Notes under the pieces: generated by a model
Told to the model about the DNA's origin: nothing
The model's database searches: none
Seen by the model: only the letters and a program-made list of their open reading frames with translations
Translations under genes and position numbers: made by a program
Source of the DNA: Facilibium subflavum
GTDB lineage: Bacteria > Pseudomonadota > Gammaproteobacteria > Francisellales > Francisellaceae
Length of the DNA stretch: 32,897 bases
Reading direction: 5' to 3'
Assembly (NCBI RefSeq): GCF_003574485.1
Contig: NZ_QLIT01000143.1
Span: 1-32,897 of the forward strand
Shown here: positions 1 to 1,802 of the stretch, piece by piece
Layout: the number at the start of each line of letters is the position of its first letter
Numbering within the stretch: the stretch's first letter is position 1

Positions 1-1201
1 GTGGGGTCAGATCATATCCTTTCTCACGAAAGTCTTCTAATTGTGCCTTGCAAATAGGGTCTAACTGATCGATTTCATTTAACATATAAGCCTTTCCCTG
101 GCTGTGAAGTGCGCCTTTTCTTTCATGAATAATATCGATATGAATATTTTGGGTGATATCATAAAATAAATGGTTATAAGGTCGTGTGACGTTCTTAAAT
201 ACATCGGCATAAATCTGTACAATATACTTAATATCGGCACAAAGCTTTAAGGCATTATTCACCGAATTTGGCTTATAGCTTTCGGTGTGATGCGCTACAC
301 TAAAGTAATGCATTTGTTCTGGGTTCTTATTGAAGAGTGAAGGAATTAAGATAAGCGGCACCTGAGTAGTTTGATAGATGTCTAAATAAGCCTGTTGAAT
401 CGCAGCCAATGGTAAGGCTGTATCATCGGTGGCAAAGGTGTGAATCGGAATATGGCCACAAAGTGCAAAGAATAAGTGCATAATAATCTGATTGGCATAG
501 GCATTTTGAAAAACAGTTTCGGTATAGTTACGACGGACTTTTGATAAAAGGTGTTGATAATAATGACTATGCCTATCATATGCCGTACGTTTAAACATAA
601 ATTGGTAAATTAAGTCCTTAAATGGATGCGCTTTGCTCTCTCGAACCATAGTCGCCCATTGTTGTGGGAAGCGTAAAAACTCTGCACGCCAGTCAGGGGC
701 AACATAGCTTGCAATCTCTTTAATGGTATTAAAATGCAAATGATTAAAATACGGGCGGGTAATATGGGTATCAAAATGCTCATTTAACGCGCGATGGCGC
801 TTTTCATCGGCCACACGACTGGCAAATAAAGGCTCTATCGTGCCGGCACCAATCCAAAAGTCCGAAGGTGAGTAATAATGAGAAACATCATTTGTGATAT
901 AGCTGGTAAAGATAAAATCACCGGCCTTATAGCTATAGTTAATTTGTATTGGTGTATTATTCAGGTAAAAATCAAATTGTTTTGATAAAAACATACCAAA
1001 GGGAATATTGGCGTCAACACGGGTGCCATCAGGTAGAAAGTGTCCTGTGTCATCGCCAACCACATCTCCATATTTATATTGCCAGATTTCAAAAGTATGG
1101 TTTCTGATATCCGGATCGGCATCTAATATTTCATGGGCTTTGGGATTTATCTCTTTTATACGCTTGGCGATGTCATCCCATTTGACTTTTATAATACTCA
1201 T
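1..1201 (-). CDS. Hypothetical protein, 3'-truncated by window edge
   Basis: An open frame of 400 codons runs from ATG at 1201 (protein start MSIIKVKWDDIAKRI) to the left edge without a stop, so the C-terminus lies outside the window. A TAA lies three codons upstream of the ATG, which fixes this start or a later one. The protein is rich in His, Tyr, Phe and Asn. It shows no signal peptide, no clear transmembrane segment and no motif I recognise. Codon use resembles its neighbours and the frame is long, so it is a real gene. A candidate promoter lies at 1234-1261. The Shine-Dalgarno sequence is weak. It may be an enzyme or an effector-like protein, but I cannot assign a function. Confidence 0.75.
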   Translation of the reverse strand, partial: MSIIKVKWDDIAKRIKEINPKAHEILDADPDIRNHTFEIWQYKYGDVVGDDTGHFLPDGTRVDANIPFGMFLSKQFDFYLNNTPIQINYSYKAGDFIFTSYITNDVSHYYSPSDFWIGAGTIEPLFASRVADEKRHRALNEHFDTHITRPYFNHLHFNTIKEIASYVAPDWRAEFLRFPQQWATMVRESKAHPFKDLIYQFMFKRTAYDRHSHYYQHLLSKVRRNYTETVFQNAYANQIIMHLFFALCGHIPIHTFATDDTALPLAAIQQAYLDIYQTTQVPLILIPSLFNKNPEQMHYFSVAHHTESYKPNSVNNALKLCADIKYIVQIYADVFKNVTRPYNHLFYDITQNIHIDIIHERKGALHSQGKAYMLNEIDQLDPICKAQLEDFREKGYDLTP

Positions 1202-1483: not shown

Positions 1484-1551
1484 AAAAAAACGCATTAAAT
1501 GTAAAGATGGATTATATGACCAGGGGGAGCTGGGATGCACTACCGCTAGTG
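1484..1551 (-). ncRNA. Possible second C-rich small RNA (about 68 nt)
   Basis: Downstream of an extended -10 promoter (1558-1566), the minus strand reads a small hairpin CACTA-GCGG-TAGTG. It is followed by a hairpin CCAG-CTCCCC-CTGG with a C-rich loop, and the stretch ends in a run of seven T at 1490-1484. The loop shares AGCTCCCC with the 3' single-stranded segment of the RNA encoded just upstream at 1633-1766. The weak point is the terminator: there is no GC-rich stem immediately before the T run. It could instead be non-functional intergenic DNA. The stretch contains no convincing coding frame. Confidence 0.35.
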
Positions 1552-1557
1552 ATAATG

Positions 1558-1585
1558 ATTATAACAAACGCTAGCGTAGTCAAAA
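1558..1585 (-). promoter_or_regulatory. Extended -10 promoter before the second C-rich RNA candidate
   Basis: The minus strand contains TGTTATAAT (1566-1558), a perfect -10 box with the TGn extension. A weak -35 TTTTGA (1585-1580) lies 16 bases upstream. Transcription would start near 1551. The surrounding CGCTAGCG palindrome lies in the spacer region. Confidence 0.45.
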
Positions 1586-1632: not shown

Positions 1633-1659
1633 AAAAAAATCGTGCCATTGGCGGCACGA
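1633..1659 (-). terminator. Intrinsic terminator of the C-rich small RNA
   Basis: On the minus strand a perfect 7-bp stem TCGTGCC/GGCACGA with a six-base loop (GCCAAT) is followed at once by seven T (1639-1633). This is a textbook Rho-independent terminator on this strand only. Confidence 0.88.
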
Positions 1660-1766
1660 GAAGGGGAGCTATAAGCTTGGGATTCTGGCAGAGGATCCTT
1701 GCTCGGTCTCAAGAGGGGGTATGGAAGATACCCGAGCGCTTCAGATGGGGGCTGAAGTCCTCTGCT
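1633..1766 (-). ncRNA. C-rich trans-acting-type small RNA, about 134 nt
   Basis: A complete transcription unit without a coding frame: promoter 1774-1802, predicted start near 1766, intrinsic terminator 1633-1659. The RNA begins with GCAGAGGA (1765-1758), which pairs perfectly with TCCTCTGC (1695-1688) to close a three-way junction. The first arm is CTTCAG/CTGAAG (1757-1752 with 1744-1739) with loop CCCCCAU. The second arm is closed by GCTCGG/CCGAGC (1737-1732 with 1706-1701) and holds an inner GUAU/AUAC hairpin plus a CCCCCUCUU stretch. A single-stranded AGCUCCCCUU follows before the terminator. Three exposed C-rich segments suggest base pairing with Shine-Dalgarno sequences, an architecture known from sRNAs such as Xanthomonas sX13. 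Homology to that family is not claimed. It does not match the 6S, tmRNA, RNase P, SRP or common riboswitch cores I know. Confidence 0.72.
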
Positions 1767-1773
1767 AATTCAT

Positions 1774-1802
1774 AATATATGATTGTCTCTTTATCTTGTA
1801 AA
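1774..1802 (-). promoter_or_regulatory. Sigma-70 promoter of the C-rich small RNA
   Basis: The minus strand has -35 TTTACA (1802-1797) and -10 TATATT (1779-1774) with an optimal 17-base spacer. The expected start (about 1766) falls exactly at the first base before the 5' strand of the closing helix of the RNA, which supports both calls. Confidence 0.75.

What the first reader, a model, noticed from the sequence alone, without database searches (positions are those of the whole stretch)
1633..1802. Complete transcription unit for a three-way-junction RNA with three exposed C-rich segments
Seen directly: a -35/-10 pair with 17-base spacing, a start at the first base before a perfect 8-bp closing helix, two internal hairpins, and a strong terminator with seven U. 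Unpaired CCCCCAU, CCCCCUCUU and CUCCCCUU all face Shine-Dalgarno-like sequence. Known sRNAs with C-rich loops (for example sX13 of Xanthomonas) repress or activate many mRNAs by this route. I could not match the RNA to a named family, so it may be an undescribed member for this lineage.
Basis: partly seen in the sequence, partly recalled or inferred. Interest (0 to 1): 0.78.

Follow-up and report, generated by a model that had tools for sequence, protein, structure and literature searches.

The report
New C-rich small RNA gene family
This is very probably a real, previously unlisted family of bacterial small RNAs: five copies in two seawater relatives of Francisella share a folded clamp that displays runs of C, which could let them block the ribosome-binding sites of other genes' messages.

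Summary
On the minus strand, 1766-1633 carries a TTTACA-N17-TATATT promoter, a three-way-junction core and a strong U7 terminator; it folds 4 SD better than shuffles. No Rfam family matches. I found four more members. One in a second genus (92% identical over 79 nt, same -35/-10 hexamers) has two compensatory pairs in helix 3. Three others (two in the window's own genome, one in the second genus) have different helix 1 and 2 sequences that still pair: 11 of 14 tested pairs change on both sides; 0 of 500 shuffles do as well. A structure-only search of 1.95 Mb finds just these five. Constant across the family are a C-run in the helix 2 loop, a second unpaired C-run after a small hairpin, and AGCGCU between them. 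The third C-rich segment (1668-1661) and the strong terminator are seen only in the window copy.

Best reading: a new family of trans-acting C-rich-loop sRNAs that works like sX13 or 6C/B11 but is related to neither. The RNA family is well supported; the antisense mechanism is inferred (only one C-run prefers start sites in a target test). No expression data. Found in 2 of 30 family genomes, by sequence searches that miss diverged members.

The parts
1797..1802 (-). -35 hexamer TTTACA
   Evidence: identical hexamer at the same place in G004 copy C3; TTGCAA in C53
1774..1779 (-). -10 hexamer TATATT, 17-nt spacer
   Evidence: same hexamer and spacing in G004 C3; TATAAT in C53
1633..1766 (-). predicted small RNA, 134 nt, start inferred at 1766/1765
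   Evidence: fold z = -4.06; ends are inferred from promoter and terminator
1758..1765 (-). helix P1, 5' strand GCAGAGGA
   Evidence: all 8 P1 pairs change on both sides across the family
1739..1757 (-). hairpin P2 CUUCAG-CCCCCAU-CUGAAG; conserved C-run in loop 1751-1745
   Evidence: 3 of 6 pairs covary; C-run in all five members
1701..1737 (-). helix P3 GCUCGG/CCGAGC with inner hairpin GUAU-CUUCC-AUAC
   Evidence: two double compensatory pairs
1707..1718 (-). second conserved C-run CCCCUCUUGAGA, unpaired in the comparative structure
   Evidence: C-run after the small hairpin in all five members; prefers start regions
1696..1706 (-). 3' strand of P3 and junction AAGGA; AGCAAGGA (1703-1696) is kept as AGCAWGGA in four of five members
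1688..1695 (-). helix P1, 3' strand UCCUCUGC
1661..1668 (-). third C-rich segment CUCCCCUU, window copy only
   Evidence: absent after P1 in the other members
1633..1659 (-). intrinsic terminator with U7, window copy only
   Evidence: no comparable terminator found on that strand in G004 C3, C53 or C35; only a weak one 124 nt after the C115 core

Best explanation
The region is a stand-alone small RNA gene, one of a family with at least three copies in this genome and two in a related genus. Helix P1 clamps the two ends of the core together. Inside it, hairpin P2 shows a C-run in its loop, a small hairpin follows, and directly after it a second C-run stays unpaired. Most likely the RNA acts in trans: the C-runs pair with G-rich ribosome-binding sites of several mRNAs and block translation, as in sX13 or 6C/B11, possibly with Hfq. 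Shown by computation: the architecture, its covariation, the conservation of the C-runs, and the promoter in three of five copies. Inferred: transcription, the 5' and 3' ends, trans action, Shine-Dalgarno targets and any role of Hfq.
For: Fold z = -4.06. Second-genus copy with two double compensatory pairs and the same -35/-10 hexamers at the same distance. Three further members with different P1 and P2 that still pair, 11 of 14 pairs covarying, 0 of 500 shuffles as high. Structure-only descriptor returns only the five members. C-runs kept while stems change. GGGG in 8.7% of start regions against 3.0% of internal windows, and the second C-run prefers start regions beyond its own shuffles. Hfq in all 30 family genomes. 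Intergenic position in every copy.
Against: No transcript data. Promoter not recognised for C115 and C35 and strong terminator only in the window copy. The P2-loop C-run shows no preference for start regions. No target identified. Known so far in two genera only.
Confidence: 0.62

Rival explanations
1. A structured RNA that works through a bound protein, not by base pairing: the conserved AGCGCU, ACUU and C-runs, or the ANGGA in the junction, form a protein-binding or sponge site.
For: AGCGCU, CUU(C) and the junction AGCAWGGA (four of five) are conserved outside the C-runs, more than antisense loops alone need.
Against: The C-runs are kept in loop and single-strand context; one of them matches start regions. 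No protein partner is indicated.
Confidence: 0.2
2. A cis-acting 3'-end element (stabiliser or processed 3' UTR) of neighbouring genes.
For: C53 and C115 copies start 70 and 44 nt after same-strand paralogous genes; no promoter recognised for C115.
Against: The window and both G004 copies have no same-strand gene ending just before them, apart from ptsP 226 nt upstream in the window; good promoters at the core start in three copies.
Confidence: 0.1
3. A mobile or palindromic DNA repeat, or a chance structure, with no RNA function.
For: Copies at unrelated positions; narrow distribution.
Against: Helices change in sequence but keep pairing; promoter hexamers kept while the spacer diverged; rare in random sequence; no match in plasmids or phages and only chance-like viral hits.
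Confidence: 0.05

Closest known systems
sX13 of Xanthomonas (PMC3771888)
   Same: Structured intergenic sRNA of similar size (115 nt) with C-rich loops that face G-rich ribosome-binding sites
   Different: Three separate stem-loops and an unstructured 5' region instead of one P1-clamped junction; no sequence relation found by Rfam or model search; Hfq-independent in Xanthomonas, untested here
6C / B11 sRNA of mycobacteria (PMC10470900)
   Same: Two exposed runs of C that base-pair with ribosome-binding sites
   Different: Actinobacterial, two C-loops, no Rfam match to the present RNA
FtrC of Francisella tularensis (PMC3405028)
   Same: sRNA of the same wider lineage; several copies in one subspecies
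   Different: 196 nt, pairs with the central part of its target mRNA; members of the present family were not found in the 19 genomes of the genus inferred to be Francisella

Membership tests
any Rfam 15 family | match above the family's gathering score | tested here: not met
   no match for the window; only chance matches at permissive E-values for all five copies
C-rich-loop trans sRNAs (functional class: sX13, 6C/B11) | conserved unpaired runs of C in a structured intergenic RNA | tested here: met
   two C-runs in all five members
C-rich-loop trans sRNAs (functional class: sX13, 6C/B11) | C-runs matched to G-rich ribosome-binding sites | tested here: inconclusive
   second C-run prefers start regions beyond shuffles, P2-loop C-run does not
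C-rich-loop trans sRNAs (functional class: sX13, 6C/B11) | repression lost on C-run mutation, restored by compensatory target change | not testable with these tools
   needs bench work
sX13 (as a homologous family) | three independent stem-loops, unstructured 5' region | tested here: not met
   core is closed by P1 from its first base; sX13 layout from PMC3771888
Hfq-dependent sRNA | Hfq encoded in the genome | tested here: met
   all 30 family genomes
Hfq-dependent sRNA | Hfq binding or dependence | not testable with these tools
   needs co-immunoprecipitation or an hfq mutant
CsrA/RsmA sponge RNA | many GGA motifs in hairpin loops | tested here: not met
   loops are C-rich; GGA occurs in a junction or within P1, not in loops
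riboswitch or leader element | regulated gene directly downstream on the same strand | tested here: not met
   G004 copies and C53 have no close downstream gene on the same strand; in the window the next one starts 430 nt after a strong terminator

The most novel reading that the evidence does not exclude
A lineage-specific set of sibling sRNAs on one P1-clamped scaffold, whose stems evolve freely while two C-runs and the AGCGCU/CUU motifs stay. GAAG at the end of P2 could also pair with CUUC of the next hairpin (only three bases in the C53 copy), so the scaffold may switch between displaying and hiding its C-runs.
Probability: 0.15. Interest if true: 0.65.

Novelty: new member of a known kind. 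Interest (0 to 1): 0.5.

Why it matters
It adds an unlisted sRNA family to a little-studied group of seawater relatives of Francisella, and another apparently independent case in which conserved C-runs on changing stems look like a design for controlling many mRNAs. With five members it can be searched for and tested directly.

Tried and rejected
Rfam at gathering and permissive thresholds: only chance matches such as GadY, CRISPR-DR24 and snoRNAs. ptsP synteny: ptsP-nudH-glnA is conserved in G004, but the RNA is not beside ptsP elsewhere. Model R1 from the two closest copies gave weak hits in G093 and G384; G093 lies inside a coding sequence and was rejected, G384 (E 0.46) was not pursued. 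Viral contig patterns: counts I judge to be chance level; two exact motif hits do not continue into the structure. Plasmids and phages: no match. MAFFT misaligns the diverged members, so no five-member covariance model was built; covariation was counted on helix strands cut out and joined. Weak hits at L242:12809, C220 and C24 were inspected and lack the architecture. The first target run gave meaningless averages for internal windows and was redone. A resemblance to a permuted twister-sister ribozyme was considered from memory and dropped for lack of any Rfam match.

Full report
WHERE. The window is contig C138 of a 2.87 Mb, 378-contig genome. Its ptsP is 70-71% identical to that of Cysteiniphilum and of a MAG labelled Caedibacter. 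By size and contig number the genome fits Facilibium subflavum (2.87 Mbp, 389 contigs), and relative G004 (37 contigs seen, about 2.95 Mb) fits Fangia hongkongensis (2.95 Mbp, 38 contigs; table in PMC7297999). These names are inferences; the genomes bear none.

OBSERVATION. The minus strand reads TTTACA-N17-TATATT, then GCAGAGGA...UCCUCUGC closing a junction, then a linker and a terminator with seven U. The 134-nt RNA folds at -43.5 kcal/mol, z = -4.06, with no shuffle as good. Nothing in Rfam 15 matches.

FIRST RELATIVE. G004 carries a 79-nt stretch at 92% identity, which is the junction core. The -35 and -10 hexamers and the 17-nt spacing are the same while the spacer differs, and close identity ends at the end of P1. 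Of six core substitutions, four make two double compensatory changes in GCUCGG/CCGAGC (GG/CC to AA/UU). They break the competing hairpin preferred by single-sequence folding, so the comparative structure leaves the second C-run free.

MORE MEMBERS. An 18-nt exact match in the own genome opened up a second copy on contig C53: promoter TTGCAA-N17-TATAAT, P1 UGCAGAGUCAG/CUGGCUCUGCA, P2 with an ACCCC run in its loop, then CGCU and CUUCAGCCCCC. A search with that copy led to a further type in G004 contig C35, and a P2-plus-CGCU descriptor to another on own contig C115. The layout, checked letter by letter against the DNA: P1 of 8-12 bp; P2 beginning CUU and ending AAG with a C-run in the loop; CGCU; a small hairpin with ACUU(C) or CUUCC in its loop; an exposed C-run; a variable stretch, with AGCAAGGA or AGCAUGGA in four of five; P1'. 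In the C53 copy the small hairpin has only three pairs.

SIGNIFICANCE. On cut-out helix strands of the four distinct P1/P2 types, all 56 cells pair, all eight P1 pairs and three of six P2 pairs change on both sides, and 0 of 500 shuffles match any measure; sliding the partner drops pairing to 34-48%. Caveat: the strands were chosen because they pair, and P2 helped to find C115; P1 was not used to find C35 or C115. A descriptor with no sequence letters other than the C-runs returned only the five members in 1.95 Mb, against 2 hits in 4.43 Mb of random sequence. A looser version gave two further hits in 2.3 Mb, taken as false because they lack the shared motifs. About three quarters of G004 was read this way.

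DISTRIBUTION. Sequence and model searches found the family in 2 of 30 genomes of the GTDB family and not convincingly in the other genomes of 369 drawn from the class. These searches miss diverged members (model R1 does not recover C53 as a whole), so absence elsewhere is not proven. No match in plasmids or phages; viral hits look like chance.

CONTEXT. Positions differ. The window copy lies between ptsP and a 400-aa gene of unknown family. The C53 and C115 copies follow paralogous genes by 70 and 44 nt (45% identical to each other, 22-25% to the window neighbour), beside divergent genes that I read as methyltransferase-like, i.e. a duplicated cassette. The G004 copies lie next to an ompH/skp-like gene and between transporter-like and sufE-like genes. 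The window neighbour's 64% orthologue in G004 has no such RNA close by.

MECHANISM. The C-runs persist while their stems change, as expected if they are the working surface. In 1155 predicted G004 genes GGGG is found in 8.7% of start regions and 3.0% of internal windows. The second C-run prefers start regions beyond shuffles of itself (1.36 against 0.20 +- 0.45 kcal/mol); the P2-loop run does not (0.44 against 0.34 +- 0.48); the window-only linker CUCCCCUU prefers start regions no more than its own shuffles (1.61 against 1.48 +- 0.42). Hfq is encoded in all 30 genomes. I therefore favour multi-target antisense repression at ribosome-binding sites, at 0.62; that this is a real structured RNA family I put near 0.93. 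sX13 and 6C/B11 are working parallels (PMC3771888, PMC10470900), not relatives.

Noticed in passing
window 2-1201 (-); L002:141-1379; L319:1409-2656; L196:7710-8921: A protein family without Pfam or NCBIfam match, with four copies in this genome; all three RNA copies of this genome lie within 500 nt of a member. Relatives occur across the family, and in several genomes of genus g4 they lie about 4-5 kb from hfq.
   Followed up: partly
L196:9182-9832 and L319:640-1314: Two genes 34% identical to each other, which read like methyltransferases, divergent from the RNA-linked genes: the sign of a duplicated three-part cassette.
   Followed up: partly
L010:512-1276 (-): A 254-aa protein next to the G004 copy with no confident Pfam or NCBIfam match; its Cys and His spacing recalls papain-like peptidases (impression from reading only).
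   Followed up: no
window 1739-1742 and 1724-1727; equivalents in other copies: GAAG at the end of P2 and CUUC in the next hairpin could pair instead of P2, an alternative fold that may act as a switch.
   Followed up: no
window 1545-1575: Inverted repeat GCTAGTGATAATGATTATAACAAACGCTAGC between the RNA and the left gene.
   Followed up: no
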